Below, one piece after another: positions 18,241-51,280 of a stretch of 64,000 nucleotides of DNA. How positions within the stretch are numbered: position 1 is the stretch's first letter; every line of letters starts with the position of its first letter. The translations under genes and the position numbers were made by a program. The stretch lies in NCBI GenBank assembly GCA_963966185.1, contig CAWZYM010000098.1, forward strand, positions 66,963-130,962, read 5' to 3'. The notes below the pieces were generated by a model. That model did not search any database and had not been told where the DNA came from. It saw nothing but the letters and a program-made list of their open reading frames with translations. This DNA comes from Rhabditoides inermis. Taxonomy: Eukaryota > Nematoda > Chromadorea > Rhabditida > Rhabditidae.

Positions 18241-18267
18241 TGAAGTGTTCATGGTTTTACGCGGAGA

Positions 18268-18370
18268 GGCGAGCGCGCCGAAGGCGCGCGAGCCTCGGAG
18301 CGCAGTGCGGCGGCGAAGCCGCCGCCACTAGCGGGCCGGAGGCGAGCGAAGCGAGCCTCCGGCCCGCTAG
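18268..18370. other. three consecutive GC hairpins at the element 2 / element 3 junction
   Basis: A stem around GCGCGCC-GAA-GGCGCGC (about 18273-18290), a stem around CGGCGGC-GAA-GCCGCCG (about 18308-18326), and a perfect 16-bp stem with an 11-base GAGCGAAGCGA loop (18328-18370), bounded on both sides by CTAG. Two of the apices contain GCGAAGC, known as an unusually stable DNA mini-hairpin. Confidence 0.8.
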
Positions 18371-19964
18371 TCGCCCCGGCTGGGGCTATATAAAATTTGC
18401 TATGGTCGTTGTGTGTTTGTTTGTCCGGGCACATAACTCAAGTCACACTGCACATTTACAGCTCATACTCTAAACTTAACATTCTTCTTGTGACAGCATG
18501 CAATCGTTTCACTTTCACAAACACAGCTCTACTTACCGTATGACTTTACTAACAACTTGACATAGCCTGAAACACTTTTCACCCATATGCTCAGTCCATG
18601 TTTCAAGATGTGAATCTAATACTGTAAACTTAGACTCAGCACACTATATTGACTTGACACACGTCACTAGGACTCATTCCGATAACTCCTTATATGGGTT
18701 TATATAGAATTTCCAAAATTTCAGAAGGACATAACTCAATACTGAAGAAACTTTTCACACTCAAACTACAAACTTAAGGTCAACTAATCACTCTTAACAG
18801 ACACACATTAGCATAAGTTCCTATCTAATTTCCTTAAATGGGTTCACCAACAACTCGGTTCACTTCTATGTAAACCTACCTTCAAACTTCATATTTTTTC
18901 ATGAAACTTGCACAGTAACATAAAACATGCGTGTTATTTACAGTTTTACAGTTTCATATCGAGAAACCAGTTCAAAAAAGTTTTACAGCAATTTTCATTT
19001 TCTGACAGGATCAATCACGTAAGATGCAAAACGCAAAAACCTTGAATATCTTCGTTAGTTTTAAAGACTAAAATTTCAAACTTCAACTGATGATAGAAGA
19101 CACTTCGCCGTTCACACCATTTCAATTTCAAATAAAATACTCATTTCGTTTTCAAAGTATGCATATTCAAATTTTCGTAGAAATTTTACATTTTTGATCA
19201 TAACTTCTTTCGTTTTCAATATTAATTTTTCAAATTTTTATGGTAAATCACTCTCTATGACACATTCAACACAAACACGTATGCTCAACTCTATTACTGA
19301 AAATAAAAATCATATTTCATGATTCACTAGATCAACTACAATTCCTTGCGATATAAGAGTTGAGACCTGGATTTTGCACAGTAATTCATAACTCAAAAAC
19401 TAACATTTACTGACAAAGATTCAGATTCTTCCCTTCACTGTAGAAGGATTTCACTTTTTTCAAAAAAACTTGTTTTTCAACTAAATGTGGCTCATTTTTG
19501 CAGTTGAGCATATTGACCGCTGACAGGATCAATCAGGCAAGATGCAAAACGTAAAATACAGTAGATCTAAGTTTCAACTTCTTAGAAAAACTATTTTTAA
19601 TTCTCTCGATCCTTTCACCAATGACACCTTTGGTCCAGAGTACCTGTCAGGTACCGTCTCACCTGTCGCCTCTCACCTGTCACCTGAGATAAATTAGCAT
19701 AAACTTCAGTTTCCACGTCACGACTCCGTAACTTTTTTTCTAGATGAGAGTTCACACCTGCATTTTCTTATTTCATTATAACTATCGTCATACCTTTATT
19801 CATTAATTTTTTCAGATTTTTTTTATTAATGTTTCAATTTAATTAACTTTCCAATTTTCGACTTTCTTATACTCAACTATTTTTTAAAATAGATAACTCG
19901 GTCACTTCTTGAGGTAGAAGGTTCATACTTCGTACATACAACAAATAAATTGAACCAAAGTTTT

Positions 19965-20190
19965 GGTAAAAAATATATGTAAACAAGTAAACAAAAAAGT
20001 AAACAACTTCAAATCTTCTAATTTTGATGTTTAATCGTCACTAGACCAGTATGAGAGTTACAAGGTAGTGTTTACAAGTCACGTAAACAAGTAAACAAAT
20101 GTGTAAACAACTCAAAAACTCTAGATTCTGTTATCTAAAGTGTACTAACTTGTAAGAGAGTTCATATTTGATGACAAGAAGTACACGCTA
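19965..20190. repeat. GTAAACAA iteron array of element 3
   Basis: Two to three units of the same GTAAACAAGTAAACAA-type iteron as in element 2, with the same spacer (CTGATGT/GTACTAG). This marks the end of the homology between elements 2 and 3. Confidence 0.7.
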
Positions 20191-20226
20191 CTGTAAACAT
20201 CCGTACTGCGAGAAGTGCAAGTAGTC

Positions 20227-20292
<66 letters not shown>

Positions 20293-20331
20293 TCGAAGCC
20301 GTCCGGCTGACTTTCTTATCACTACGATTTA
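20191..20331. repeat. (GA)n tract downstream of the envelope-like gene
   Basis: 20231-20292 is (GA)n with a few AAA interruptions. No gene. Confidence 0.8.
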
Positions 20332-20585
20332 TTAACAAACTTTACCGCCCACATTGTTGCGAAACTGGCGAACAGATTTAACATACGGCATCACTTTCCA
20401 CTTCAAATACAAAACAATTCCGAGAAGCACTATTCCAAACACAATTATAAACGAAACGATCAGCACACATAGCCAGTCAACAGAACTCCGAGAACGGCGA
20501 GTTTCCAGAGAAGACAGCCGAGATGTCATAGGGCCCGTCAACTTCTCCACCTCTTCCGTCAGAACGTGCGGTTCACCCTGAATAA

Positions 20586-20634
<49 letters not shown>

Positions 20635-22202
20635 CTCTTTCTCTTTCTCTTTCTCTTTCTCTCTCTCTTTCCCTCTCTCTCTCTCTCGCCCTCTCTCTCC
20701 CTCTCTCCCCCCTCTATCTCTCCCTCTTTCTCTCTCTCACACACACTTTTTCCTCCCCCTTCACGCACCATGTCTACATTCACTGTGAATGATTCAAATG
20801 AGAGTCCCTTCATCACTGTGTCTCCGCATTGCATATCCTCGCCAACTCGCAGCTGCTTCACCAATATTCCGGAACTGCCTACGAGAATGCGCTCTGTGCC
20901 ACCCTCCAATCTAATCGTACACTCCTGGAAAGAGAACATTCGCACTAACAAAACAGACAATACTTACCTTTACTGTATTCGCAATTATATAAACATCTCG
21001 AATCAGACGAACATGAGTGAAACTGTTGTTGTATTTCATATAATGCAATGAGCAAGCGGTTCCGAAATTCAGATGACTACAGTCATTTTCCGATTGGATG
21101 GTACTCGGCACGCACTCAAACTCTCCTCCCGCCTAAATACACAACTACATAAATATATACCATGCAACGAATAAACTGTACCTTTTCAATGCATCTAGAA
21201 ACTCCGATATGGCCTTCACTTTCACTGTCGAAACTGTACAAAGGAACATCATGAAAACTATATATTTTATTTTTTCTATCCAGGAAACCGGTGTCCGCAA
21301 ACTGCAAAACTGTTCATTCATTCAATGTTTATGTAATAATTATATTTCACGGACCTGGTTGAATACTCCAACTTTTCTCTGCCTGGCATCTTCAAAAGTG
21401 AGTGTAGTGTGAATACTAGAAGTGTTCACATCACAGCTGGAGACAACAGCGGATATATCACGAACGGCTGCCAGATAGTTCACACTGCCAGTGAAGTTCA
21501 CAATGTCCTGAACACGTAATAACGTGATACACTAATCGAAACTGAAGAAATACTGAACTCACCGTAGGTAGATCACTGGCGAACGAACCTGCCTACTTAT
21601 TAGCAATAAATAAAGAATACAATTCATTGTTCAATCTCGTCGTTCCAATTTCCGCATGCAATTTCCTAAATTCATATTCACAATTTCACACACATCAATG
21701 TCACTTACGTTATGCTGTTTCTTGCATCCAGAACAGCTTCCTCCACGTTGTTGATTCTTCCGTTAAGTTCATGATGAGCGTACTGTTGAGAAACAGATAG
21801 GCCAACATTTATGATTTGCAGAAGAAAAATAATAGATCTCTTGTTTCGTTTGATTTCAGAAACTGCCTTATGCGGGACTGAAATCAAAATAATATTTTTC
21901 ATAATTACAAAATTTTATGTACCTGTTGTACAATAAGCTTGCAATGTTTTGTTATACGCTTCCAGCATAAAATCATCCACATGAGAGTACGAGAAACGAA
22001 AAACGACATCAGCTTGCACAGAGGGACCCGCAATTCTAAATAGCCAAACAATGTATTCATACATTCACATACATATGTATACCATTTCTCACCTTGCTAT
22101 CTTCCCACTATTGTGTAATTCCAGTAGTCCGTTTTTGAGCACACGAAACGATGAGTGAATGGGAATCAGGAGCAAGAGGAGGAGAAGACGTAAAATCATC
22201 AT
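20332..22202 (-). CDS. envelope-like class I fusion glycoprotein gene with one in-frame stop
   Basis: Nine exons at 22093-22202, 21923-22035, 21709-21877, 21563-21665, 21355-21507, 21182-21301, 20968-21132, 20769-20924 and 20332-20577 total 1335 bases, exactly 445 codons. The coding order is signal peptide (about residues 1-17, Leu-rich); a short N-terminal subunit; an R-N-K-R furin-type site (codons at 21837-21848, about residue 88) followed at once by a hydrophobic fusion-peptide-like run; a heptad-rich helix; a Cys-containing ectodomain with several N-x-S/T sequons; a transmembrane anchor (about residues 396-419); and a ~25-residue tail. This is the layout of baculovirus F, errantivirus Env and similar proteins; the family match is by architecture, not by sequence. 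Exon 4 has one in-frame TAG (near 21597-21599); no intron in phase removes it. The start codon lies one base after a TTTCAG, as at a trans-splice site. It may be a freshly dead or a recoded gene. Confidence 0.72.
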
Positions 22203-22360
22203 ACTGAAACACATAAATTAACAATCATCAACAGAAAAGTACATTGTACTTAATAAAAAGTACATAATATAACAAAGAATAACACAGAAAAATTATGCAT
22301 AAATGAAAAAGTTTTTTTTCATGAGTGTGGTTGATTACGATATGAGAACATTGAGAACGC
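22203..22360. promoter_or_regulatory. upstream region of the envelope-like gene
   Basis: On the minus strand TTTCAG ends one base before the ATG pair, a likely splice or spliced-leader acceptor. The rest is AT-rich. Confidence 0.45.
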
Positions 22361-22501
22361 GTCTGTTCTGCAGCAGACAGCACACGCCTCTGGTATGTGC
22401 TCATTCAGATAGCGCATCTTCAAAGGGTTTCCCAGCAGACAGCTTTCCCATTCCCCGTGGCAACATGACCTCATTTTACACATCCAGAAACGCGCGCCAA
22501 A
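22361..22501. repeat. left copy of a ~140-bp direct repeat flanking the 150-bp array
   Basis: It shares the blocks ACGCGTCTGTTCT, TTTCCCAGCAGAC, TTCCC, GGCAACATGACCTC and CGCGCC in the same order and direction as 23510-23653. The identity is partial (roughly three quarters by eye). Confidence 0.75.
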
Positions 22502-22668
22502 AATGTCTTCTTTACACTGTTCATTGAATGTTACAATCTCCTACATTCTGGAACTCTCATATGTTTCATAAGAATCTTTCCAAGTTGATATCATATTCGT
22601 GAAATGAGGTCTTCATACTTCATTGCACAACAAATATGAAAAGTAAGAAGACAACAACAAGTAATCAC

Positions 22669-23400
22669 GTATCAAAGACAAGTAAACATGTCACAAGCGC
22701 AATCACGTCATTGCCCCGCCCACTAAATGCCGTCAGCCAATCATATTGCACTACCGTATACCTCTCGTGTTATTTAGTTATATTTTCAATGTTTCAATGA
22801 ATATCGTAACAATACTGCGTGTCAAAGATAAGTAAACATGTCACAAGCGCAATCACGTCATTGCCCCGCCCACTAAATGCCGTCAGCCAATCATATTGCA
22901 CTACCGTATACCTCTCGTGTTATTTAGTTATATTTTCAATGTTTCAATGAATATCGTAACAATACTGCGTGTCAAAGATAAGTAAACATGTCACAAGCGC
23001 AATCACGTCATTGCCCCGCCCACTAAATGCCGTCAGCCAATCATATTGCACTACCGTATACCTCTCGTGTTATTTAGTTATATTTTCAATGTTTCAATGA
23101 ATATCGTAACAATACTGCGTGTCAAAGATAAGTAAACATGTCACAAGCGCAATCACGTCATTGCCCCGCCCACTAAATGCCGTCAGCCAATCATATTGCA
23201 CTACCGTATACCTCTCGTGTTATTTAGTTATATTTTCAATGTTTCAATGAATATCGTAACAATACTGCGTGTCAAAGATAAGTAAACATGTCACAAGTGC
23301 AATCACGTCATTGCCCCGCCCACTAAATGCCGTCAGCCAATCATATTGCACTACCGTATACCTCTCATATTATTTAGTTATATTTTTAATGTTTCATGGG
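22669..23400 (+). repeat. five tandem 150-bp units between the divergent envelope-like and Rep genes
   Basis: The marker AGTAAACATG recurs at 22681, 22831, 22981, 23131 and 23281, a period of exactly 150. The middle three units are virtually identical; the first and last have edge differences. Each unit holds, in order, CACGTCATTG (CRE-like), CCCCGCCC (GC box), GTCAGCCAATCA (CCAAT box) and CACTACCGTATACC. Placed between two divergent genes, this is most simply a shared promoter/enhancer. The ends being more diverged than the centre suggests recent unequal exchange. A replication role cannot be excluded. Confidence 0.85.
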
Positions 23401-23509
23401 ATAAAAAAGACCACTGTGTGTCAATGTTGCATTGTTTTAAGTTTGAATACACATATGATCATTTACACAAGTCATGTATGTAGGTGCACGCGTTGTTCGA
23501 TCTATCACG

Positions 23510-23653
23510 ACATACGCGTCTGTTCTACAACAGACCCAATTGGCCTCCGGTATTTCAGACTGCTGAGATAGCGCCTCTTCAAAAGGTTTCCCAGCAGACG
23601 GATTCCCATGCCCCAGGGCAACATGACCTCTACGCAGACACAAATACGCGCCA
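23510..23653. repeat. right copy of the ~140-bp direct repeat
   Basis: This is the partner of 22361-22501 in the same direction, lying between the 150-bp array and the Rep start. Together they make array units flanked by a longer direct repeat. Confidence 0.75.
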
Positions 23654-23719
23654 ATACGTTCATTCACATCTGTACACACATTTCCATAATATTGTTCACT
23701 TCTTACACCTTACACTGTT

Positions 23720-23740
23720 TCATTCATTTTCGTTCAGGAT
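23720..23740 (+). promoter_or_regulatory. acceptor directly before the Rep start codon
   Basis: TTTTCGTTCAG ends one base before the ATG at 23739. With no upstream exon found, this looks like a spliced-leader acceptor and supports this start. Confidence 0.5.
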
Positions 23741-24665
23741 GAGCAACATCGATAAACTCTTTTCGAAGATGTTTACGAGGGCTCGTGTACTGTGCGAAGT
23801 GAAGGTGAAGACAGGAAGGATCGAGAAGATGAACGGTGACTGTGTCGTCAACGCAGCTAACGTGGGACTGATTCCCGGTGAGTATTCTTATCAGTTCCAT
23901 TTCGATTACGTTCGTTTAGGCAGCGGAATCGACGGCGCGATTCGGAGGGCGGCCGGGAAGAAGCTCACTGAGGAGACGAGCGCTCTCATGCAGAGCAGAG
24001 GGAGGAACCTCGACGTTGGAGAGGCAGTGGTCACCAAGGGCCACAAGCTGTGCAAGAGTGAGCTCTCTCTTTCCCTCCCTCTCCCTCCCTCTCCCTCCCT
24101 CTCCCTCCCTCCCTCTCTTCTCTCTCTCTCGCTCTCTAATGTATTTCCCTGGTTTATCTCTTTCTTTCAGAAATCATCCACGTGGCTGGTCCGTACGTGG
24201 ATGAGGGCACGGCCCCCTCGCAACACCAGTGTGACCAGCTCCGGATGGCGTACCGGAATGTGTTCCAGAAAGCAGAGGAGCTGAAGGTGCAGAGACTGGT
24301 GAGTACACAACGCAAAAACAGTTTAAAATTGAATTTATTATAGGTCGTGCCTTTCTTATCGATTGGAGTGTTCCATTTCCCTAAGGAGATGGGAGTGAAG
24401 ATTGCGATAGAAGAAGCATGGAGATTCAAGGACACGACTTCTGTAAGTCACTCTGAAACAACAAAAAATGTGTAAAAGAAAATAAACTTCATAATAATAA
24501 TAATAATTGTTATGTTTTTTTCCAGGCCGTGGAAGTGGTGGTGTTGGTGTGCAGTGATGCCCATATCACACAACTCGCAGACAGGGACAACGAGCGTCGC
24601 TACCAAGAACAGTACGACCGCGTCGTGAGGAAGGTGCGAGAGGAGAACGCGCGCAAGATGCTGGA
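23739..24665 (+). other. macro domain exons of the Rep gene
   Basis: Exons 23739-23877, 23920-24057, 24171-24298, 24344-24442 and 24526-24665. Seen are MNGDCVVNAANVGL (NAAN binding motif), GSGIDGAIRRAAG (glycine loop), GEAVVTKGHKLCKK followed by IIHVAGP, VVPFLSIGVFHFP and VVLVCSDA. These are the successive strands and loops of an ADP-ribose-binding macro domain. Such domains bind or remove ADP-ribose and in several viruses counter host PARP responses. Here the Gly-rich loops needed for binding are intact. I do not know this domain as a standard Helitron part. Confidence 0.85.
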
Positions 24666-24668
24666 GTG

Positions 24669-24721
<53 letters not shown>

Positions 24722-26162
24722 CTCTCTCTCTCTCTTTCTCTCTCTCGGTCTCTTAAATGTTCAATGCAGGAAAGTTGTGGCGGAGGATGAGATGCCACCG
24801 TTAGACAGAGCCATGGGATTCATCCAAGAGATGATTGCCGAGAGGGGAAGCAGCATCGATCTCCTCCTCCCCATCCACACCGCTCTCGTCAGTGTTCTCT
24901 CTCTCCCATCTCTCTCTGTCTCTTTCTCTCTCTTTCTCTCTCTCTCGATTGTTCCTTAAATACCTGAAGCGTTGTTTATAGAACAGCCGACGACGTTTCC
25001 GCCACACGACCGGAGCGACCGGTGCTGCACAAATTATCTCCCTTCCAGGATCCGACAATTACGCTGTTGCCATGTCAGTTACTTTTATCAATATGCAATC
25101 TTATAACTCGAATGTCATGTAAACATTCAGATATGTTTCTGGTGAACACATCGTTACATACTACGACGCATCTTTGATCGGATCGAATCGACCAGTGGAA
25201 ACTTGGGTTAGTGAAACAAATATATGTATGTATTGCATTGGATTAAACTGATGTTTTTTTAGTTCAGCGAGGGAACGGTCCGACAGCTGGTGCACCTCTT
25301 CGGAGCACTGTTCGAGGATGCGCCGATTCGACTATCCGTCGATGTGGCTATCGAAGGAAGCAAGAAGGTGTTTAAATTATAATTTACTTAATAATGTATT
25401 AACTTGCTATCATCTCTCAGTAATCATTTCATGACCCTGTCCATAATTTGTGATCATTTAAGGGCATTACGAGTCAAGAATGGGCAGTAGCAACTCTCAT
25501 ATGTGCGTTGGGCGGTTGCGAGCCTGCCAGGTTAGCTCATTCTCTCTCTCTTTCTCTCTCCCTCTCTTTCTCACTCTCTCATTCGTTTAGTCACTCCTGG
25601 AACGCTTCTCTCGTGAAGGAGGCAATGGCAGGTGCGCAGGCGAGGAAGGGAGACTGGGGCAGCTACGCCAATCTGTGTGCTGTGCACAAGTAAGTCAACC
25701 TCATTCAGTATTGTTTTGAAATAACACTAAAAAATCAGTCGCGTTGTTCCACCTGGCGGATTCGTCAACTTCGCTATTCACCAGGACAGTTTTCGTGCGG
25801 AGAAAACTAACCAGTGAGTATAGCGTATAAACTTCCATTCATTCTCATTTCTCTTAGGTTTTCGGCGCCTCGGAGGGAGATTGAGTATGCTGTGGAGAAG
25901 GAGACGAGTCCTGCGACTGTGAAGAAGGCAACTGCAATGGAGAAGAAGGAAGGCGGAAAGAAGAAGGGGACCAATCCGGAGATCGAGTACGTCTTGGACA
26001 AAGGAGCGAGACTGGTCAGTTGGTTCATCCTGTTGTCTTTCATTTATTGTTCTGTTCAGCCGACGCACGGGGAGATGGCAGAGACCGAGTGTGTGGACAG
26101 GGCGTGTGAGTACCTGCAGAGGATCGCGGACAGGGCAATAGAAGGAGCGCAGATGGTCCAGA

Positions 26163-26198
<36 letters not shown>

Positions 26199-28546
26199 AT
26201 TACTTGCAGTTTTTGAACGCGGATGGTGCCATGCCAATCACTCATCCGACAGGCAGGCTACCGGCTCTCCAGATACACCATCACCAGAAGATGCAGCACT
26301 ACGTCATCACCTCGTGAGTAGTACAGAATCACACTATAACATTGAAATGCATTGTATTCAGCTATGATCCGGAGATGCACGTTGTGAAGATCTATGATAG
26401 CATTATAGATAACAAGGAAAGCGTGAAGGATTACGTGAGTTTCTCTTCTCTCTCCCTCTGTCTTTCTCTCTCGAGTAGGCAATAAAAAAGCCACGGAAAG
26501 AAATTCTTCCACATAATCATAATAATCAGAACGAACACTATTACAACCTCTTTTCTCGTTTTTTGGTTGTTGTTGTACAGTTCACATTTAGTTGATGGAC
26601 TGTCTTCCGTTGCGGAAGCAGATACAGTTCGTGTACAAGGATGTGTTTCCGGGAGAGGACATTCGCATCGCAGTGGAGACGGATTACGACTGCCAGAAAG
26701 TGAGAGCATTATTATTTAAAGTAGTTGCAAATTTGTTTAAAAAAATTCAACTGTTGATTGTTTCAGGACGACTGGAGTTGTGGCTTCCGGTGTCTGGGTG
26801 TGTTTATTGCGCTTCTTCGCGGTGACGACCCCGCCAGGTGAGTACTTATCACCTTGTGTTTTATTATGAAATGTTCAGACTCGTCTGGAATCGGCATGCT
26901 CTCTGTACTCTGATGACTGATGCGATGCAGAACAAGTACTCGTGGTCTCACTACAACAGTGCCGTTCTCGGAAGGTGATACATGTAGATACCGTTCCATA
27001 TATTCCAACACTTCTTCTAGACAACTACATACACACATACACATATCATATAAATTGGGAAAGTTGTTTTCTTTCAGTCATCGAGATCGACGGACCACTC
27101 AGACTGAATCCCTTTTCCATTTCCGCCTCAACCAGCTCACTTTCGTCGTCACTTCTACGGATAACAAGTATGTTTATTTGTGTTTCTTCTGTTATTTCGT
27201 TGTATTGGTTGGTTAGGGATGCGGAGCGGGGAAGACTGTGGGGAGCTCTGACGAGGAGGGAGGCGAGACGAGAGAGGACTCCGTCGCCAGTGTGCATGGA
27301 GGGGGATAGGGAGGAGACAGAGAGTGTTGCCTCGTCTGTCACTTCGTCTGTTGCGTCCACTACGCGCAGTGGGAAGAAGCTGACGCCGAGACAGAAGAAG
27401 GATCGAGAAGCCGAGCGGAAGAGACTGTCACGATCCAAAGGTAGATAGTATGTCTAAATGATTGACTTATGTGTCTTTACAGAAAACACCGAGAAGAGAG
27501 AAGAGAGATTGAAACGAGTTCGTGATCAATCAACCCAGAGACGTACAGATGGTCAGTTTCAGTACATTTCTTTGTAAGCGTGTAATTGAAAAATATTGGT
27601 ATACATTCACTTATTCACATACATATTTCAGAGACGCCTAAGAAAAAAGCAAGGCGACTCTATGAACAAGCTTCTAGATCAGCTCAAGGAAGGGAAAGAG
27701 GTATTATCAAGACAACTTGATTGTAAATTCTCTGAACAGCATTTAAAAAAAAAATTCAGAGAGCGAAGAACAGCGTGTGTCAAGACTGGACGACAAACTG
27801 GCTCGATCCAGACAACGCCGTGATTCTGGTGGGTGCACGACCAAAAAACTTGAAATGATTTTTTTCTCAGAAACCGACACAGAACATGCAGTTCGACTTC
27901 AGAAGAAATCAGATTATGAGCACATGTTGCTTCAGAAAAGTTTGTTCTTGAATATAGTGTTTTCTTCAGTGGGCACTTATTATTTGTTAATGGTTTCATT
28001 TTAGGTTCTTATGACACCCGTGAACAGATCAACGAGCGACGCGCGGCATGGAGGCACGCACCCAAAAATCGTGAGTACAGAGAGAGAGGAAGAGAGAGAG
28101 AGAGGGAGGGGGGTAAGAGGAGAGAGAGAGAGAGAGAGAAAGAGGGAGGGGGGAGAGAGAGTTTTTTTGCAGCCGGCTTCTTCGATAGCTACGAGGGAGT
28201 GGAGCAGCACGACTGCGGAGACTTCACCGTAGCGTGCGAGTTCTGTGGAGCAGTCTACCTGGAGGGAGAGTCGCAGTCCGTCAAGTGCTGCCTCGCTGGC
28301 AACTACAAGCCGACCGACTGGGCAGAGAGGCCGGCCGAAGTCAAGGAGATACTCGGAGCGATGTGGGTTGCGAGAGAGAGAGAGAGAGATAGAGAGAAAG
28401 AGAGAGATAGAGAGAGAGAGATAGAGAGATAGGAGAGGTTGTTGCAGGCTGGTGCAGACAAACTCTGTCGAATTGAACGCGAATCTCGCGCTGGCATCAA
28501 TCAATCGCACGTCGCGAGATGTGAAGGGAGGAGTCTTCGCAAGGAA

Positions 28547-28589
<43 letters not shown>

Positions 28590-28796
28590 CACCCACTGAT
28601 TGCAGACACAAGGCGCGCCGTCCCACTCGCTGTCGTCTGCCATCCCCCGTTTCGCAGACCAGCCTCTGATGTACGGACAGAGGTGGTTCGGAGACGGACT
28701 GTACCCGGACATCAGATGGTCGGAGAAGTACGGTAGATACATGCTGGGCAAGAAGGGACTCAGCCACGTGCAGGGACGAAATCTCTCATTGGTACG

Positions 28797-28872
<76 letters not shown>

Positions 28873-29256
28873 TCTCTCTAGTGTATACTTCTAGGCTCTC
28901 GACCGACTCGCGGAGGTGTTGAGGGAGTGGAATCCGTACGTCAAGATGTACGTGTCGGAGGGGGAGAAGTCGCGCGGAGTGCCGAGGAGTGCGATGAAGA
29001 CCCGCTGGCTGGTCATTCACCACGACTACGTCACACTCCAACAGAGGGCGGATCCCGATGTGCACAAGGTGAGAGGCACTTTCTTTGATGACTGATTCAC
29101 TCTTTGTTTTTAGGGCGCGTACAGCAGACTGAAGGAGGGAGACGTGGTTCTCCTGGCGCAGACGGACAAGGAGGGACGGCCACTGGACACGGCCAACCTC
29201 TCTGTCGAGTACATCCACACCGGACGAAAGAGGGAGATCCCCCACTTCAGGTGAGT

Positions 29257-29292
<36 letters not shown>

Positions 29293-29542
29293 GGTCTTTT
29301 TAGCCCGCTGGTGGACCCGCTCTGCTACATCCTCATCCATGTGATGGGCGAGTCTGGCTACGACCCGCGTGCCCCGGGAGTGCGGCCGCAGCTCGCCCCT
29401 CTCAAGGACAAGAGACTCGGAGTCGCGCCCAGTGAGTAGCCAATGTACTGTTCCCCATTCGCACTTTCTGTTTCAGCTGATCGATCGAGTGGACCGCGCC
29501 GCGGGACGGAAGAGCAGGAGCAGGAGGAGGAGGAAGGTACAC

Positions 29543-29589
<47 letters not shown>

Positions 29590-30338
29590 CAGTATGTGTA
29601 ATGTCAATTTGTCAATGTATAGAGCGTGAGATGGACCATGACGAGGGTGACGTCATAGTAGAGGGAGAAGCGCCGGAGCGACTAGTGCAGGAGCAGGCGG
29701 AGCCATGTGGAGAAGAAGAGATGCTTCGTCAGGACCAAGAAGGATTCCGGATTGGTGAGCCCCCCCTCTCTCTCTTTCTCTCCCTCTCTCTCTTTCCCTC
29801 TATCGCTCTCTTTCTCTCTCTCTCTTTCTCTCTTTCTCTCTCTCTCTATCTCCCTCTCTGCCCTTCTCTGTTTCTCTCAAATTCATGTTCACTATCAGAT
29901 GTGGGAGTAGAGGGACCAGTGGACGACACTGGAACACAGATGGCAGATGAGCGCATGGAGGAAGACGAGGAGGATGAGAACGAGGGAGACTACGGTACAG
30001 TGATACAGTGTATAGATTATAGCAAACAATCAGAATATTGAACTCGGTCCAAGTAGCATTACAATACAGTTGTGTGGAATCGTCAGGATACGGTAAAATA
30101 CAGTAATTCAGTAATACAACGGATTTCGGATATATAACGGATTTCGATAGTCGCGTAATTTTCTGCTTGTGGCTTCTAGAGAAATGAACTTTTGATGATT
30201 GATTTTCAGCTCCCCACAACTGCAATGAGCCCGGAGAAGCGACTGTGCGAGCGAGTCGCGCCATTCGGACCAAGTCTCTACTCACCAACGACAGAGACTT
30301 CTTCGGCGACATCGACCAGACAGTGAGTATCCCCCCCT

Positions 30339-30389
<51 letters not shown>

Positions 30390-31751
30390 TTCTCTCTCTC
30401 TCTCTCTCTATTCACTCACATACATACAACATATTGTCTAGGAGGAGTCTCCTTTCGTTCGCCAACAACTTCCGCGCAATCGCTCTGCATCTGGCCGCAA
30501 GATTCGAGAGCACAAGCAAGAAGGTACGTCATCTTGATTTGTGAAAGAATGAGTTCAATACATTCATTTTCGAAATCGAGAAAAACATTAAAAATATTAA
30601 AAATTTTGCAGTCCGTACTTCGTGCATGTCTCGTCGGGAGGAGATGGTGTTCAAGATTAGGACAACTGAGAAGAACCTGGAGGAGCAGTCGCATCCGATC
30701 TTCTCGATGCTCGGACTGGGGCAGTTGTATGTGGAGGACCAGCACATGCGCATCATCCGGGCACAGTGAGTAGTACTGTATACAGTAGTCGTGTGTAGAA
30801 GATGACAGAACAGAACCGACGTTTTTTTTTCTCGAAGCAATGAGCACATTATAACACGTACATTGGGGTACGGTTACGGTGAAATACAGTAATGCAATGC
30901 CTACTGCGACTTCCAATAGGTCAATAGCACGGATCTCGGTAGTACAGTGTATGCGTACGTGCTATCAGTATCGCATGTTGTAGACACGACTTCACGAAGA
31001 TGCATCATGTGGAGAAGAGGACAATGCCAATTCAGGAGGTACGAAACTCTCTCTCTCTCTCTCTCTCTCCTTCTCACTCTCTTTTTTTATTTTCCGCTTC
31101 AAGACTTCGTTTTCAGATGCGTGAAGAGGTGGCACGTCTGAAGCAGAATCCTTCGAGGGAGAACCGAGCTGCCATCCACCAGTCGAATGCGTTCCTTCGC
31201 TACAGGGACGCCGCCACCAAGCTGCGAGTCGACCTCGGAGCTATTGTGAGAAAATAATTACAATTAAAGTTCTGCAATTGAAAAGTAGCAATCACAAAAA
31301 TATAACGAAAACACACAACACACTAATTAGAAAAAGTAGTATTGAAAAAAGAATCCTCAAAAAAATAGCAATCACAAATTATCAAAAATACATTGGCATT
31401 TACTAATTCGTGCTCTTGTTTTAGTTCCTTGCGAATGCTGCTGTGAAGGGATCTCCGCGCTACATGAGGATGCAGGCAGAGAGGGCGACTGTTGTGATGA
31501 ATGAGGTCGGATCGCCCGATCTCTTCATCACATTCACAGGTACGAGAAGGAAGAGAGAGAGAGAGAGAGATAGAGATATAGAGAGAGATAAAGAAAAAGA
31601 AAGAAAAAGAGAGAGTATACATTTGGGAGCAGTTTTCATTTCGTTCAATATTGAATTTATAGGAAGTCCGGTGTGGGCAGAGATTCAGAGGAACCTGTTA
31701 CCCGGACAGCGATGGGTGGACGCGCCGGATCTGGTCAATCGAGTGAGTATG

Positions 31752-31798
<47 letters not shown>

Positions 31799-31954
31799 AC
31801 TGTTCTTTGCAGATCTTTTACATGAAGATGCACGCGGTATTGGACAAGATCATTCTGGAGGGCGCGTTCGGAGAGGTGCTGGCCTATGCGTGGTCGCTCG
31901 AGTTCCAGGCCCGCGGCATGCCCCACATTCACCTTCTCCTCACTCTCAAGGTGC

Positions 31955-31993
<39 letters not shown>

Positions 31994-32191
31994 TCCCCCT
32001 CTATTTGTATACTTATAGGAGAAGCTGAGCACTGCGGAGAAGGTGGACCGATTCATCAAAGCGCAGATCCCGAGTGAGCTGGAGCCGGTGTTGCGTGAGA
32101 AGGTGCTGCGTCTCATGTGCCACAAGCCCTGCAGCCACTACGACAAGAAGGGAGTCTTCCACCCGCACAAGGACGAGTTCTGTCGGTGAGT

Positions 32192-32252
<61 letters not shown>

Positions 32253-33202
32253 CAGGGAACATGAACTGTTGTGCAGAGTGGACGCGCAGCACCCGGAGGC
32301 GAGGCAGTGTGGCAAGGGCTTCCCGAAGCCGTTCTCCGAGTACACGGTGATGCGTGAGAATGGCTACGCGGAGCCTGCTCGGCCGAAGGGACCGTGGGTG
32401 GACACTCCCCGCAAGTACCAGGTCAACAACCAGTGAGTGCATTCCCCTGTCTACTGTAGTATACACATGTGTTCAGGTGGGTCGTGCCGTTCAACCCACG
32501 CATGCTGATGGAATTCGACTGCCACGTGAACGCAGAAGTCACGTCGTCAATCTTCTGCGCCAAGTATATGTACAAATACATATTCAAGGTGTGTATAATA
32601 ATACTGTTTTTTTTCTTTTATCTGAATCAACTCACGTGAAGTGTTACAGGGTTTCGACAGGGCTATGTGTGAGCTGATTGACAGCGCCATGGTCAACGAC
32701 GGGAGCCACGCGGGAGTGCCGGAGTTCGCCACCTTTCAACACGTGAGAAAGACACAGAGATATAAGAAACATGAGAGCGAGAGAGAAAGCAAGAAAAAGA
32801 GAAAGAGTGAGAGAGTGAGAGAGTGAGAGAGAGAGAAAGAGAGAGAGAGAAAGAAACAGAGAAAGAGAGAGAGAAAGAGAGCAAATGCGAACTTCTAGTG
32901 CGTCATTTCATCTTCTCTGGATCTGAATGAGACCCAGCGCGAATATATGGACCAGAATGCGCAGAAGCTGCTCCGCGACCTCCAGGTAAGAACTGCGCAC
33001 AGACTTTATTTGATTTTACGTTTGAACGACTTCATTGTATGATTCAGATAAGCCCCGAGGAGGAGGTGATCAACGAGGACGGAACGACGGAGAAGGTGAA
33101 GAACGTGGTTCTGGACGAGTTCAGCCAGTTCACTACTCGCATGGCGATCACTGCCCCACAGGCCGTATGGGGAATCCGCGACTGGGAGATCGCCAAGGTG
33201 AG

Positions 33203-33248
<46 letters not shown>

Positions 33249-33626
33249 AGGCAATATCGAGATTGTTTTAGATTTCGCACCACGTGGACTTTGCGAGTGT
33301 GCACCTTCCGAAGAGGGCTCCGCTGGTGTTCGACAAGGACGCGGACTACGATGAGGTCAGAACAGCCAGGCACACCTTTGAAAAGGGAACAGTCTCAATG
33401 TCTCTTTCCAGTTGTTGGCTGAGGCAGACGAGGGAGAGGCGCAGTCGATCACGGAGGCGTGGCTGGAGCTGAACAAGGAGAACGATCTGGCCAGGCGGTA
33501 CACCATCCGAGAGGGAATCAAGCACTTCCGGATCATCAAGAAGGGACACGGATACAAGTGGGCTCCGAGGAACAAGAAGCAGCGCATTCACCCGGTTAGT
33601 ATCTCTCTCCCTCTCTCCCTCTCTCC

Positions 33627-33659
<33 letters not shown>

Positions 33660-34201
33660 CATCTAATCAGTTTTAGCCGATCCTCCGTCTGCGCTCCGTG
33701 TGTCCTTCTCGCCGCGAGAAGTACGCTCTCCGTCTTCTCTTCAACAATGTGGCCGGAGCCCGCAGTTTCCCGGAACTCGCGACCACCGTAAGTTCTCTCT
33801 CATTATCTCTCGCAATCTCTCTCTCTCTCTTTCTGTCGCTCTCTCACTATCATTTTCTTTTTTAGGACGATGGCCGTCAGTGTTCGACATTCTCGGAGGC
33901 GGCAGCGGAGAGGGATCTTGTGACGAGTGACCTGCAGCTGAAGAAGGCTCTCTCTGAAGTGGCAGCGGACGCGCCTCCTCGAAAGGTCGCACTCTTCTTC
34001 GCTCAGCAGCTCGCGAACACTGGACCCAGCAAGGTAAAAACAGACAATCTCGAATCAGAATCAGAATATGTATCTCATCAATTCTAGGATGCTCCCGCGC
34101 AGATGCTTGCAGAGAACTGCGATGCGATGTTCCTCGCTCCCGCTAAGACGGAGAAGGACAGGACGCGACTGATGAACATGCTCCTCTACTCTCTCCAGGT
34201 G

Positions 34202-34251
<50 letters not shown>

Positions 34252-35296
34252 TCCCCCTCTCTCCTTCTCTACGTAAGACATTTACAGAAGATGTTGTCGT
34301 GGTATGACTGTGATCTGGAGCAGTTCGGTCTGCCCCTCCCCGATCGCTCGTTTGTGCCGCAGCCCGAGAGCAGGAGAGGATCGAAGGAGTACGACTACGA
34401 GAATGACGTCATCCACACTCCGCCCACCAACTTCAACCTCATGGACAAGACGAGTGTATGTAATCTCTCTCTTTCTTTCTCTCACTTTATCTTCTTCTTT
34501 CTCATGTTCAATACACTACTTACAGAAGCAATTGAATGGAGAGCAGAAGAAGGTCTATGATCACATTCTCCGCAAGTTGAGCGGTGGATTCGACAGGCGA
34601 CCGGAGATCGTTCTGGGATCCGGCGGATGTGGCAAGACCACTCTCTTCCGAGCTCTCGTCTACGCTGCCATCGACAAGAACATGAAAGTAAGAGAACATG
34701 AAAGATGAACATGAAAGAACATGAAAATAGATGACGATATGTATGATTAATTTGTCTGTTTGTAGGTGGCGTGTCTCGCGTACACTGGATGCGCAGCCCA
34801 TCTCCTGCCAGCTGGAAGCACTCTCCACCGCTTCTTCTGGCTGAATCGGACTGCTGACGGGACTCTCTTCTGCAAGATCACCGGACGCAGTGTCAAGGAA
34901 AGCAAGCTGCGAGAAGTGAGTGACAAGGGCAACACATGACACTATACATTACATACGAGTAGAAATACAAACGTAATCTAAGTATTTTACAAACATATGG
35001 TTTATTCACAACATGTTTTTGTTATAACAAAGGAATACTCACTCAAAAATACATAACATCGCTGCAACATTTTCAGATCGAGCTGTTTCTCATTGATGAG
35101 ATGTCGATGCTGGATCGGGAGCTGATCAATCTGATCGACGCGGTTCTGAGGAAGGCGACTGGAGTGAACAAGTTCTTCGGAGGAAAGCTCGTGGTCTTCG
35201 GAGGAGACTACAGACAGGTAGGGAGAGAGAAGAGAGAGATAGGGAAGAGAGAGGGAGGGAAAGGGATAGAGAAGAAAGAAAAGCGAAAAAAGAGAG

Positions 35297-35335
<39 letters not shown>

Positions 35336-36087
35336 TTTTCAGATTCTCCCGATCATCCAGGGTCTGGAGGGAGACGAGGTTCTGGTGGAGTCTCTTCTGC
35401 AGCACCCTCTCTGGAGGGTCAGTCGCAAGTCGTGGCTCACTCAGAACATGCGTGCCAAGGAGGACAAGGACTATGCCGATCTCGTCTACCACATCGGAAA
35501 CGGAACTCCGGATCTCACTGCCAAGGTAAGTCGCCGCCCGTTATTCATGTGACTGGTAGAAATGATCAAACTTAGACATTCACTCAATAATGCAAATGTA
35601 AGCGATTGTGTGAATATTTTACTTTAGATGTTATAATAATTATTTGCAGGTGTGTTCTGGCTGCTTTCCGATCTTCAAGGACTCTGCCTCGGATGTGATC
35701 AAGTGGACGTTCAACAAGATCGACGATGAGAAGAAGAGGGTCGGAAGCTGTCTCCTCGCCATCACCAACGACGAAGTGAACCAGCTCAACGAGGAGGTAC
35801 GCTTCATATCACTAATTCTCTTTCTCTCTTTCTCTCTCTCTTCTTCTTTATTTTTTTCAATCAACTATGTAACATTGAAAGATCCACTTGTATTTGTAGG
35901 TTCTCGTGCTGCTTCCTCTCTCGAAGAAGAAGGTGGATGGCTACTTGGACCACGTCTACCTCTCCATCGACACTCCGGACTCGACTGGTGGCATGCAGCT
36001 CTCACCCGAAGACTGCCACACCCAGTGTCCTGCCGGTCTGCCACCTCACTCTCTTCATCTCAAGGTAAGAGAGAAAGATAGACAGAC

Positions 36088-36139
<52 letters not shown>

Positions 36140-36405
36140 GAGGGAGATAGAGATTTCAATTCAGCTGGGAGCCACTGTGATGTTGATCAAGAACATCGAC
36201 GTGAGGCGTGGACTGACGAATGGCACTCGTCCCATTGTCCGCAAGATGGTCAGTTGTCTGATATGCAAATATCACATCTTACTTTTCACTTCTCACTATT
36301 CATTTTTAGGTGTTTCAATTGTATTTTTTTTCAGCGAGAGCATTCGATCATGGTGCAGCGGATCGGAGATGCGACGGGAGAGACTTACGAACTCGGAAAG
36401 TGAGT

Positions 36406-36444
<39 letters not shown>

Positions 36445-36687
36445 AGGGAGGGAGAGAGAGGGAGGGAGAAAGTGAGAGAGAGAGAGAGAAAGAAGGAGAG
36501 AAAGAAGGAGAGAAAGAGAGAGAAAGAGAGAGAATCTTCTATATTTCGATCTAACAATCGTGTATTCAGGATGCTTCTCCAGGACGCGGATCCGAGGAAG
36601 AGTCTCTTCACTCGCTTCCAGTTCCCTATTCGTCTCGCGTTTGCGATGACGATCAACAAGTCGCAGGGAGCAACGCTGGACAGGGTG

Positions 36688-36731
<44 letters not shown>

Positions 36732-37108
36732 TTCTTTTTTCTTTTCTCCTTCTCACTTACGAATTTTTTTTATTGTAGGTGGGACTGGTTCTGTCGAATC
36801 CGGTCTTCACTCATGGTCAGCTCTTCGTGGCGATGAGCAGGGTTCGGAGGAGGAAGGACATCGCCATCTACACTGCCATGAAGGTAAGAGAGAGAGAGTG
36901 GGAGTGGAGAGAGAGAAAGAGAGAAAGAGTGAAAGAGTTAAACAGTCTCTTCTTCCAGTCGATCGATGGAGAGAAGTCGTGTGGGAAGCACCACGCTCGC
37001 ATCTACCAGCTGAAGAACATCGTCTACCCGGATGCCGTGCAGGCGATGACCCCTCCCAAGACTCACACCGTTGACCACAACTTGGATGTGGAGGAGGATG
37101 ACCAGTGA
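23739..37108 (+). CDS. Helitron Rep/helicase with N-terminal macro and Ulp1-like domains, ~65 exons
   Basis: About 65 short exons with GT-AG introns of 40-250 bases can be joined into one frame of roughly 2,500 residues ending at TGA 37106-37108. Domains in order: macro domain (23739-24665); an unrecognised region (24770-26170); C48/Ulp1-like cysteine protease (26206-26838); a basic, Arg/Glu-rich linker with the (R/E)xxR repeats usual before Helitron Rep; a CxxC...CC zinc motif (28172-28361); the Helitron-like N region; the HUH/two-Tyr Rep nuclease (about 31117-32741); a linker; and a PIF1 superfamily 1 helicase (34526-37108). It would nick, unwind and transfer one DNA strand in rolling-circle transposition. 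All catalytic motifs are present and I saw no frame break. Such intron density is unusual for a transposase and suggests long residence or adoption by the host. That the N-terminal domains and Rep are one transcript is inferred from continuous phase and lack of internal start/stop signals; cDNA would settle it. Confidence 0.85.
26206..26838 (+). other. C48/Ulp1-like cysteine protease exons of the Rep gene
   Basis: The order His-Asp-Gln-Cys of Ulp1/SENP-type proteases can be read: a His in QHYVITSYDP (codon 26297-26299), an Asp in VKIYDS (26396-26398), a Gln (26694-26696) and the nucleophile in DDWSCGFRC (26779-26781), followed by ALLRGDDPAR. Spacing and motif wording (viYDS; Q..d.dCG; g.dP) fit peptidase family C48. 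It could process SUMO/ubiquitin-like modifiers or the Rep polyprotein itself. The assignment is by motif only. Confidence 0.65.
28172..28361 (+). other. zinc motif preceding Helitron Rep
   Basis: The exon encodes CEFCGAVYLEGES and, a few residues on, VKCCLAGNYK, the CxxCgA...E...CC..G signature that precedes the Rep region in Helitron proteins. It probably binds zinc and helps contact the element ends. Confidence 0.8.
31117..32741 (+). other. Helitron HUH Rep nuclease exons
   Basis: GSPDLFITFTGSPVWAEI is the Helitron-like N core. GMPHIHLLL holds the metal-binding HUH (codons 31924-31932). FCAKYMYKYIFKG holds the catalytic tyrosines in the KYxxKY arrangement (32565-32579). These residues nick and covalently hold the DNA strand. 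All are present and in frame. Confidence 0.93.
34526..37108 (+). other. PIF1-type helicase exons
   Basis: LNGEQKKVYDHIL opens the domain. Walker A is GSGGCGKTTLF (34616 onward), Walker B is LFLIDEMSML (about 35085-35114), then FGGDYRQ-I-LPI, the LTQNMRA motif, and near the C-terminus FAMTINKSQGATLDRVG and GQLFVAMSRVR. This is a complete superfamily 1B 5'-3' helicase, as in Helitron RepHel proteins. Confidence 0.95.
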
Positions 37109-37730
37109 AACGAATATATGTACATACCAGTAATTGTTGTAAGTGATTGAATTAAGAAGTATTGAGTTAGTTTGTCATTGAAATTGTTTGTGTATCATTG
37201 AAATTGTTAATGACTGATTTGTGAATGTATTGATGGCATCGATTGTTTTTACCGCATTTCAATGATTTCCAGACAGATAAATCAATTTCTGAGTTTCTAA
37301 CTAGTTTGTTTTCTTCTGTTTTACATTGTTCACTTTACTATCGGTAACTGTACTATTTTCATTTGAAATAATGTTTCTACAATTATTATTATGTCACGGT
37401 TTTCATTTACATATCAACAATACACAGTGTGACCACTGCTTGCTTGCCAAAAACACTCTAACTCACGAAGATGCACAGTCACGTCTTATCTTTGCCTACA
37501 ACTGAACGTCGGCCAACCATACTGTACTACCGTATAATTCGTACCAATGGTCTTTGATTGCGATTTTTGTATGAATACATTTCGACAGTTCAAGTTACGA
37601 GGCATGGTTGTGATTAACAATTATATTCATTTGTGAACAATATTCTACACAAATACACTATAACTTCAAAAACAATATGTACAATAACGATACATATATA
37701 CATAGACAAGAATGTGTCATGGCCATGACA
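37109..37730. other. spacer between convergent 3' ends, with one diverged copy of the 150-bp unit
   Basis: At about 37440-37545 the blocks CAGTCACGTC, AACGTCGGCCAACCATACTG and ACTACCGTATA follow the order of the 150-bp promoter-like unit at 22.7-23.4 kb, same direction, with clear divergence. The rest is AT-rich, without a gene. Confidence 0.6.
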
Positions 37731-38223
37731 TTAAGGAATGGGAGAAAGAGAGAGAAGCAGGAAAGGGGACGGGGCATCATCCGTCTGACAGCCGACGTCC
37801 CTGTGTCCCTTGAAGAGAGAGTCGTTGTGCTTCTCCGCGAACATCTGCAGTTCTGCTCGCACGCCACGGCGCACAGCATCCGACACTCCGCGGGCGACCT
37901 AAAAAAATTATTACATTACTTATAGCTTGATTTTGATCATATCGTAACATCATATATCTAACCTGGTTTCTTGAGTAACACTTGTACATTCCGATGCAGC
38001 AGGAACAGAGGATAAAAAATACCCCGAGAGCAGAGAGGGCGGCTTGGAACTGTCCAGTGGCGTACCAGGGGATGGAAGGGGTGGGCCAGGGGAGAGAAGT
38101 GGCGATTTCAGGGTGAAAAGAGATATCACCGGGGAGATGACGCGTCGAATCAAGACGGATCGGATGCGCACAGCACATCGTGACGAGGAGAGAGAGAAGG
38201 AACAGAATAATGTGAGATGCCAT
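37731..38223 (-). CDS. small type I membrane protein (142 residues), function unknown
   Basis: Two exons, 37963-38223 and 37731-37898, with a 64-base GT-AG intron, phase 0; stop TAA at 37731-37733. Residues 1-19 form a clear signal peptide (MASHIILFLLSLLVTMCCA). A ~40-residue Pro-rich ectodomain follows, then a transmembrane helix at about 60-82 rich in Cys and aromatic residues (FFILCSCCIGMYKCY), and a ~60-residue charged cytoplasmic tail. The family is not recognised. It lies inside element 3 near the 3' end, on the same strand as the envelope-like gene, so it may be a second surface protein. It is shorter than any known envelope and shows no furin site. Confidence 0.65.
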
Positions 38224-38623
38224 TGTGAAATGATCTCTTCGTTGACACAACTGCCTTTTATGACCTTGTGTTCCCGCGCGAATAGACTGCTCCGTCACCT
38301 TTGTGCCCTCCGGTATAGCCCTTATCACATACTCACATAATGATTGTCATACCCATGTCACATGTGTTGTTATGTGAGTGCAACTGGAAAAAACAGCGAC
38401 AGAGATAGATAGAGAGAGAGAAAGAGAGTTTGAGAACTGTTGATTGATGATGTTTACTAGTTATGTACAGTAGTGAACGATATAGTAAACAAGATATACT
38501 TCACTGAAAACATTCTGATAACTACAAATAACATTTGTACATTCGTGCGACAACCATTAAAATTATGAGTTTATTTTCGTGGAGCAACATTCTCTCAGTC
38601 AAATTCTGATTTCACCTGTACAT
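38224..38623. other. 3' subterminal region of element 3
   Basis: A short GA tract (38405-38428) and AT-rich DNA. No gene. Confidence 0.4.
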
Positions 38624-38666
38624 CTAGCGGGGCGCGAGCGAGCGAAGCGAGCGCGCGCCCCGCTAG
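38624..38666. other. 3'-terminal hairpin of element 3
   Basis: A perfect 13-bp GC stem with a 17-base loop containing GCGAAGC. Both ends read CTAG, and TCGCCCC of element 4 follows at once. It has the same design as 18328-18370 with a different stem sequence, so structure is kept while sequence changes. Confidence 0.85.
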
Positions 38667-51006: not shown

Positions 51007-51041
<35 letters not shown>

Positions 51042-51246
51042 CCTCTCTTCCCAGTACTTTCAATCAGAGTCTCTCCCTCGAAGTCTGTTTTCATTTCAGT
51101 AGATTCTCCACCGTCATTATCATATGCCTGTCCGTTTTGATCGCACTGCTGCAACGATCGCCGACAATTCTGTTGTCGTCGTGCAAACTGTACTTCTCGT
51201 CGTTCCTAGGATTCTGGGAGCACTACACGCCGACGTGTCAGGTGCG

Positions 51247-51280
<34 letters not shown>

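What the first reader, a model, noticed from the sequence alone, without database searches (positions are those of the whole stretch)
18371..38666. A 20-kb Helitron-like element carrying an envelope-like gene and a second membrane-protein gene
Between a TC start and a CTAG hairpin end, shared with its neighbours, lie a complete Rep/helicase gene, an antisense gene with the full class I fusion protein layout, and a small antisense type I membrane protein. Helitrons are normally purely intracellular transposons. Mavericks in nematodes are known to have acquired fusogens linked to transfer between species; a Helitron with the same kind of cargo would be a separate origin of an envelope-bearing transposon.
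Basis: partly seen in the sequence, partly recalled or inferred. Interest (0 to 1): 0.95.

Follow-up and report, generated by a model that had tools for sequence, protein, structure and literature searches.

The report
Helitron carrying an envelope-like gene pair
In a worm-like genome, a large rolling-circle jumping gene carries two selectively maintained membrane-protein genes, one laid out like a viral fusion protein, which hints that a normally cell-bound transposon may have gained a way across membranes.

Summary
The 20.3-kb unit is real. Its ends, Rep/helicase, macro-domain gene, antisense envelope-like gene and small antisense membrane gene recur in the same order at three other places of the 172.6-Mb genome (C190, C109a, C109b), with different 3' neighbours. 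All four close envelope-like copies found lie in such elements. Both membrane genes show purifying selection. A lineage of three near-identical derivatives lacks both; a divergent copy keeps an envelope remnant and another keeps the small gene, so both genes look old in the family.

New here: distant relatives of the two genes lie side by side, envelope then small, at three loci with no Helitron, Maverick-polymerase or integrase match nearby. That is the order they take in the Helitron's circular form. They look like one module split by the element's ends.

No homology to a known fusogen was found (exons searched singly). No capsid gene was recognised in the pieces scanned. Transfer between species could not be tested. 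No earlier report appeared in open-access library listings.

The parts
18371..18376 (+). 5' terminus TC(GCCC), directly after CTAG of the preceding unit
   Evidence: same start after CTAG in C190; C109a and C109b start with TCGCC after an A
18371..20244 (+). 5' block, shared with about 2-kb non-autonomous units that form head-to-tail arrays (16237-18370 is one)
20335..22202 (-). envelope-like gene; exon pieces (edges approximate) 22202-22092 (signal-like), 22031-21921, 21875-21711 (RNKR site, fusion-peptide-like stretch, heptad helix), 21670-21566 (holds the in-frame stop of this copy), 21507-21355, 21301-21182, 21132-20968, 20924-20769, 20577-20335 (stalk, membrane span, tail)
22357..22502 (.). 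block about 76% identical to 23514-23664: possibly paired upstream regions of the two divergent genes
22668..23400 (.). minisatellite, period about 150 bp, between the envelope-like and macro genes
   Evidence: repeat offsets 22695, 22845, 22995, 23145
23739..26970 (+). macro-domain gene; later exons (26210-26970) look by eye like a cysteine protease, with no profile support; whether it ends before Rep or is fused to it is not settled
28173..37108 (+). Rep/helicase gene: HUH exon 31807-31950, KYMYKYIFK exon 32478-32588, PIF1 exons 34526-35525, stop at 37106-37108; start not settled
37731..38223 (-). small type I membrane protein gene, exons about 38223-37960 and 37898-37731, about 142 aa
38624..38666 (+). 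3' terminal hairpin that includes the CTAG end itself

Best explanation
A Helitron-like element whose ancestral gene set includes a two-gene membrane module: an envelope-like protein with class I fusogen layout and a small type I partner. SHOWN: the genes lie between the same ends in four copies, show purifying selection, and relatives of the pair occur side by side in the order envelope-then-small at three other loci. INFERRED: Rep nicks at TC, the helicase unwinds, the 3' hairpin and CTAG end the transfer, and a circle forms in which the two antisense genes come to lie in the order envelope then small. The protein pair is made from the element and put on host membranes, where it promotes passage of the element (circle, or a vesicle or borrowed particle holding it) between cells or individuals. 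That last step is the least certain; a use in blocking rival elements or viruses would leave the same sequence traces.
For: Co-occurrence: envelope exon 3 gives 4 matches of 4 candidates, all inside the element. The four copies are collinear from 5' block to 3' hairpin, apart from the missing envelope exons of C109a, with different 3' neighbours. Selection: dN/dS 0.11-0.58 (exons 1-4, six pairs) and 0.08-0.36 (exons 6-9, six pairs); small gene 0.18 against C341, exon 1 amino-acid identical at 7 of 13 matches. Joint absence: C409a, C409b and C410a share the breakpoint 37474|38218 that removes the small gene; C409a and C409b share 20244|23360 without the envelope gene, and no exon 3 match lies anywhere on C409 or C410. 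Old presence: envelope remnant in C87, the most distant of nine copies over 311 bp; small gene in divergent C341. Module: exon 8 relatives (43%, E 3.8e-6) at four loci, three of which have a small-gene relative 0.7-0.8 kb downstream on the same strand. Layout. Helitrons form circles joining TC to CTAG (PMC4778049, abstract and passages).
Against: No Pfam family over its cut-off on 6 envelope exon pieces. Against PDB, exon 3 gave nothing up to E 10 and exon 8 nothing below E 2.4; exon 9 matched a bacterial adhesin repeat protein (4p99, whole-sequence E 3.8e-4, no single stretch passing), which I take as chance but is not a fusogen hit. Exon 10 (stalk and membrane span) is weakly constrained (0.73-0.79). 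Two of four envelope copies are damaged. No capsid gene was recognised in the pieces scanned (none was specifically searched for), so packaging is unexplained. C410b lacks the envelope gene but holds a decayed small gene, and two units on C410 carry the small gene without Rep or envelope sequence in the stretch held, so the pair is not strictly inseparable. Copies of one genome are not independent witnesses.
Confidence: 0.55

Rival explanations
1. Captured host genes: the pair is a host gene pair (the C89/C112/C87 loci are its home) that the Helitron picked up and carries as cargo, with selection for a host-like function such as suppressing host responses.
For: The second-kind loci have no Rep-domain, PIF1, Maverick-polymerase or integrase match nearby. 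Helitrons are known gene-capturers (PMC4778049, abstract).
Against: C89, C112 and C176 give identical scores and frame lengths for exon 8, as copies of a mobile element would. The genes sit at opposite ends of the element, which simple capture of one stretch does not give. Basic cleavage site, hydrophobic stretch and heptad helix are kept in 4 of 4 copies.
Confidence: 0.22
2. The envelope-like and small genes act in defence or exclusion: expressed at the cell surface or in the secretory path they block entry of related viruses or elements, as some endogenous retroviral envelopes do (recalled).
For: Would explain purifying selection without capsid or particle and the strong conservation of the small protein.
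Against: The fusion-peptide-like stretch and cleavage site are conserved, which pure receptor blocking does not need. No direct evidence either way.
Confidence: 0.13
3. Chance neighbours: the membrane genes belong to another insertion nested next to Rep, and the four copies are segmental duplicates.
For: The copies lie in tandem Helitron arrays where junctions are common; C98 and C190 have the same 40 bases before the 5' end.
Against: Same gene order between the same ends in four copies with different 3' neighbours; C409a lacks both genes but keeps 5' block and 3' end; an envelope remnant lies in the same place in C87.
Confidence: 0.05

Closest known systems
Canonical Helitrons (e.g. Helraiser/Helibat1, PMC4778049)
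   Same: Rep with HUH motif, PIF1-type helicase, 5' TC and 3' CTAG, 3' hairpin
   Different: Hairpin here runs into the CTAG itself instead of lying 11 nt upstream; intron-rich; extra macro-domain, envelope-like and small membrane genes; size 20 kb
Helentrons with OTU or VTD deubiquitinase domains (PMC9741609, passages; PMC4067079, listing only)
   Same: Rolling-circle element with additional domains that may act on the host
   Different: Macro domain here; no OTU, VTD or endonuclease domain matched in the pieces scanned
Nematode Mavericks with a putative fusogen (Widen and colleagues, as told in a passage of PMC10680173)
   Same: DNA transposon of worms carrying a fusogen-like membrane gene
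   Different: No polymerase or integrase match on contig C98; no exon 3 or 8 match on the contigs with a Maverick-type polymerase
Env-bearing retroelements: errantiviruses (recalled) and nematode belpaoviruses such as Atlas virus (PMC9094657, passages)
   Same: Transposon plus envelope gene
   Different: Those are reverse-transcribing elements with gag; Atlas Env is class II; here a class I-like layout in a rolling-circle DNA element
Helitron that became a bracovirus segment (PMC5714489, abstract and introduction)
   Same: Helitron DNA linked with virus particles
   Different: There the particle is supplied by the wasp virus; here the element carries its own membrane genes

Membership tests
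Helitron | Rep with HUH motif | tested here: met
   PF14214 E 1.5e-12, 48.5 bits against a cut-off of 28.9, and the HIH motif on exon 31807-31950
Helitron | second Rep motif with two catalytic tyrosines | tested here: inconclusive
   KYMYKYIFK on exon 32478-32588 read by eye, motif recalled; no profile hit
Helitron | SF1/PIF1 helicase downstream of Rep on the same strand | tested here: met
   PF05970 on four exons, one over the cut-off (E 4.9e-10), three weaker
Helitron | 5' TC and 3' CTRR ends with 3' hairpin | tested here: met
   4 of 4 copies start TC and end CTAG after the hairpin sequence
Helitron | insertion between A and T without target duplication | tested here: inconclusive
   Base before TC is G, G, A, A and base after CTAG is T in 4 of 4, but all lie in arrays and no empty host site was seen
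class I viral fusion protein | signal peptide, basic cleavage site, adjacent hydrophobic peptide, heptad helix, C-terminal membrane span, in that order | tested here: met
   Exon by exon in the window; cleavage site, hydrophobic stretch and heptad kept in 4 of 4 copies, membrane-span exon in the 3 copies that have it; exon 3 models as one helix (pLDDT 95). Signal peptide judged by hydropathy only
class I viral fusion protein | sequence homology to a known fusogen family | tested here: not met
   No Pfam family over cut-off on 6 envelope exon pieces, no fusogen among PDB matches of 3; single short exons have low power
class I viral fusion protein | trimeric six-helix fold and fusion activity | not testable with these tools
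   Would need the exons joined; step referred
Maverick/Polinton | type B DNA polymerase and integrase in the element | tested here: not met
   No PF03175 or PF00665 match on contig C98 (150 of 164 integrase candidates scored)
LTR retroelement with env | integrase and reverse transcriptase next to env | tested here: not met
   No PF00665 match on C98; the reverse transcriptase frames seen among 10 window frames scanned, 3-1022 and 52574-53464, lie outside the element

The most novel reading that the evidence does not exclude
An enveloped Helitron: a rolling-circle transposon that carries its own two-component entry module and spreads between cells or animals as DNA circles in membrane vesicles or borrowed particles, a separate invention from envelope-bearing retroelements and Mavericks.
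Probability: 0.22. Interest if true: 0.97.

Novelty: new variant of a known kind. Interest (0 to 1): 0.87.

Why it matters
Helitrons are reported to have crossed species, and the vehicle is unknown (recalled; titles such as PMC4038834 in a listing). An element that keeps a fusogen-like gene and a partner under selection would make that question directly testable, and would suggest that the step from transposon towards a virus-like agent has also been taken by rolling-circle elements.

Tried and rejected
Rejected: nested-neighbour reading (same order and ends in four copies). Not supported: origin from this genome's Mavericks (no exon 3 or 8 match on contigs with a Maverick-type polymerase). 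Rejected: an intron hiding the stop in window exon 4; I looked for GT-AG solutions by eye and found none that keeps the frame, then saw that the other three copies have no stop there. Led nowhere: viral contigs searched with envelope exon 8 (alone and as alignment) and a Rep exon; protein database searched with the small exon and exon 8, where the length filter hides full-length relatives of exon pieces; Rfam (0 matches); PDB with the small exon and a helicase exon (chance-like or generic ATPase matches). My first codon counts read envelope exons 1 and 2 in a wrong frame; one search replaces them and leaves out the 9 codons after the stop in exon 4; a few codons at exon edges there include intron bases (end of exon 2, start of exon 4). 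The region upstream of the macro gene in C341 reads N and was not pursued. What the C89/C112/C176/C87:1.42M loci are remains open.
Full report
The window is C98:66963-130962 of an unnamed 172.6-Mb genome in 599 contigs. A weak Srx chemoreceptor match (PF10328, E 0.004, below its cut-off) and short introns suggest a nematode; I did not identify the species.

Element boundaries. The element starts with TC at 18371, directly after the CTAG of the preceding unit, and ends with CTAG at 38666, where the next unit's TC follows. The last 43 bases fold as a hairpin that includes the CTAG (-22.2 kcal/mol, shuffles -12.7 +/- 2.1, 0 of 200 as stable). The first 130 bases belong to a large family: 355 candidate places, 40 scored, 40 matched. 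Many are about 2-kb units in head-to-tail arrays, one of them at 16237-18370.

Genes. On the plus strand lie a macro-domain gene (PF01661 E 2.8e-10 and 5.4e-5 on two exons) and Rep/helicase (PF14214 E 1.5e-12; PIF1 on four exons, one over the cut-off at E 4.9e-10, three weaker). On the minus strand lie the envelope-like gene (20335-22202) and the small membrane gene (about 37731-38223). No Pfam family passed its cut-off for the pieces of either that I scanned, 6 and 2.

Copies. Nucleotide searches with the envelope-like region (74 matches, 40 of 1,551 candidates scored; the weaker ones fall in one simple-sequence intron) and with the 3' part (15 matches, 15 of 15 candidates) place the envelope-like gene at C98, C190, C109a and C109b, and the 3' end or small gene at these and further places. 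A protein search with exon 3 found 4 matches of 4 candidates, the same four loci. The four elements are collinear over their length, apart from the envelope exons missing in C109a. The sequences after their CTAG differ in all four, each starting T; the base before TC is G, G, A, A, and C98 and C190 share the 40 bases shown before the 5' end. So they are not one duplicated block including its 3' neighbours, though all sit in Helitron arrays and no empty host site was seen.

State of the copies. The window's envelope-like copy has an in-frame stop in exon 4; the other three have none in that exon. C109a lacks the C-terminal exons from within exon 8. I name no change and pick no copy.

Selection. 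Counting exon pieces apart, dN/dS for exons 1-4 is 0.15, 0.58, 0.21, 0.11, 0.14, 0.23 over six pairs; for exons 6-9 it is 0.10, 0.08, 0.11, 0.09, 0.36, 0.21 (C109a with exons 6 and 7 and a little of 8 only); for exon 10 it is 0.73, 0.79, 0.73 over three pairs. Pairs are not independent. In one search (whose envelope totals are not used, exons 1-2 being misread there) Rep pieces give 0.03-0.05, helicase 0.03-0.22, macro 0.07-0.11. The small gene is amino-acid identical in exon 1 at 7 of 13 matches; against C341 dN/dS is 0.18 with dS 0.27, and its coding part is more conserved than its flanks in most copies compared.

Layout of the envelope-like protein. Exon 1 starts with a hydrophobic stretch (mean hydropathy 2.1). 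Exon 3 holds RNKR followed by SIIFLLQIINVGL and then a heptad row (L37, I41, V44, V48, A51, I55). This is kept in 4 of 4 copies apart from one two-residue insertion (C109a), conservative changes, and T for A51 in C109a. AlphaFold2 models exon 3 alone as one helix, residues 2-53, mean pLDDT 95; this is one short piece and supports a helix only. Exons 6-9 hold seven cysteines, exon 2 one; there are four N-glycosylation motifs. Exon 10 holds a membrane span (hydropathy 3.3) and a short tail. The layout is that of a class I fusion protein; homology to one was not found. One PDB match with a nominal E of 3.8e-4, exon 9 to a bacterial adhesin repeat protein, has no single stretch that passes and I take it as chance.

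Gain and loss. Among further elements with macro and Rep matches, C409a and C409b join 20244 directly to 23360, without the envelope-like gene. C410b joins about 18560 to 23432. C87 keeps a short envelope remnant (62 bp at 87%; tblastn E 3e-7) beside frames that look Tc1/mariner-like by eye. C410a holds a 1,013-residue reverse-transcriptase-like frame there, so its breakpoint is hidden, but no exon 3 match lies anywhere on that contig. C341 reads N. C409a, C409b and C410a share the breakpoint 37474|38218, which removes the small gene; C409b's 3' match then stops at 38308. Over 311 bp around the macro start these three are 99.7-100% alike and C87 is the most distant of nine copies (86-88%). So a recent lineage, counted once, lacks both membrane genes, and both genes look older than most sampled copies. 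Against strict coupling: C410b has no envelope gene but a decayed small gene; two short units on C410 carry an intact small-gene exon 1 without Rep or envelope sequence in the stretch held; C238 keeps only small exon 2; C454 ends at a contig edge.

A second kind of locus. Exon 8 finds, beside three element copies (C109a lacks the exon), four relatives at 43% identity, each E 3.8e-6: C89:865793(+), C112:36841(-), C176:207778(+), C87:1423568(-), and one at E 1.2 (8 of 8 candidates). Small-gene exon 1 finds C89:866778(+) E 5e-4, C87:1422515(-) E 0.007, C112:35970(-) E 0.024 and C147 E 0.36 (13 of 13). Three of the four exon 8 relatives thus have a small-gene relative 0.7-0.8 kb downstream on the same strand; C176 and C147 are the exceptions. 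Exon 3 found no match there. The weak single E-values are strengthened by this pairing, which chance would hardly give in 172 Mb (inference). No Rep-domain match (80 listed, 85 candidates), Maverick-polymerase match (11, 25 candidates), integrase match (150 of 164 candidates scored) or PIF1 match (89, 144 candidates) lies near these loci. C89 and C176 have none at all, and the nearest on C112 and C87 are about 250 and 570 kb away. Reverse transcriptase was not searched there.

Reading. In the linear element the two genes sit at opposite ends, both antisense. Joining CTAG to TC, as in Helitron circles (PMC4778049, abstract and passages), puts them in the order envelope, 5' block, junction, small, same strand: the order of the second-kind loci, at about 3 kb instead of 0.7-0.8 kb. 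The simplest reading is a two-gene module into which the element's ends came to lie, by permutation of a circle or by capture on both sides. That the pair belongs together is well supported; that it moves the element between cells is inference.

Literature. Eight searches of an open-access library (5.39 million PMC papers) listed no title or abstract start describing an envelope or fusogen gene in a Helitron; only the top of each list was seen, subscription papers are mostly missing and bioRxiv is not held as a library. From what I saw: nematode Mavericks with a putative fusogen (PMC10680173, passages); Helentrons with VTD or OTU deubiquitinases (PMC9741609, passages); a hookworm endogenous virus with a class II envelope (PMC9094657, passages); retrotransposons that regained infection without env (PMC13269885, passages); a Helitron as a bracovirus segment (PMC5714489, abstract and introduction). 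PMC4067079 and PMC4038834 were seen in listings only.

Verdict. A real, apparently old and selected association of an envelope-like gene and a partner with a Helitron: a new variant of a known kind. Whether it is an entry module, a protective one or captured cargo is open.

Noticed in passing
16237-18370 and 38667 onward; C109 and C190 arrays: About 2-kb non-autonomous units in head-to-tail arrays joined CTAG|TC; 355 candidate places of the 5' end in the genome, of which 40 were scored.
   Followed up: partly
C418, C419, C420, C131 and others: Many Helitron Rep matches in single open frames of about 1,870-2,030 residues, plus 2,852-residue ones on C34, C52, C96 and C516: other families that may be recently active.
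   Followed up: no
L053:2346-5384 (C410a): A 1,013-residue frame next to the macro gene that looks by eye like a Penelope-type reverse transcriptase with an N-terminal GIY-YIG-like part.
   Followed up: no
L055 (C87), between 5' block and macro gene: Tc1/mariner-like frames, by eye, where the envelope-like gene has decayed.
   Followed up: partly
C410:309.6k and 335.8k (L035, L034): Short units with an open small membrane gene and a 3' end but no Rep or envelope sequence in the stretch held: possible non-autonomous carriers of the small gene alone.
   Followed up: partly
3-1022 (+), 52574-53464 (-), 50852-51472 (+): Two reverse transcriptase frames (PF00078) and a weak Srx chemoreceptor match flanking the arrays.
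   Followed up: no
26210-26970: Exons after the macro domain look by eye like a cysteine protease, without profile support.
   Followed up: partly
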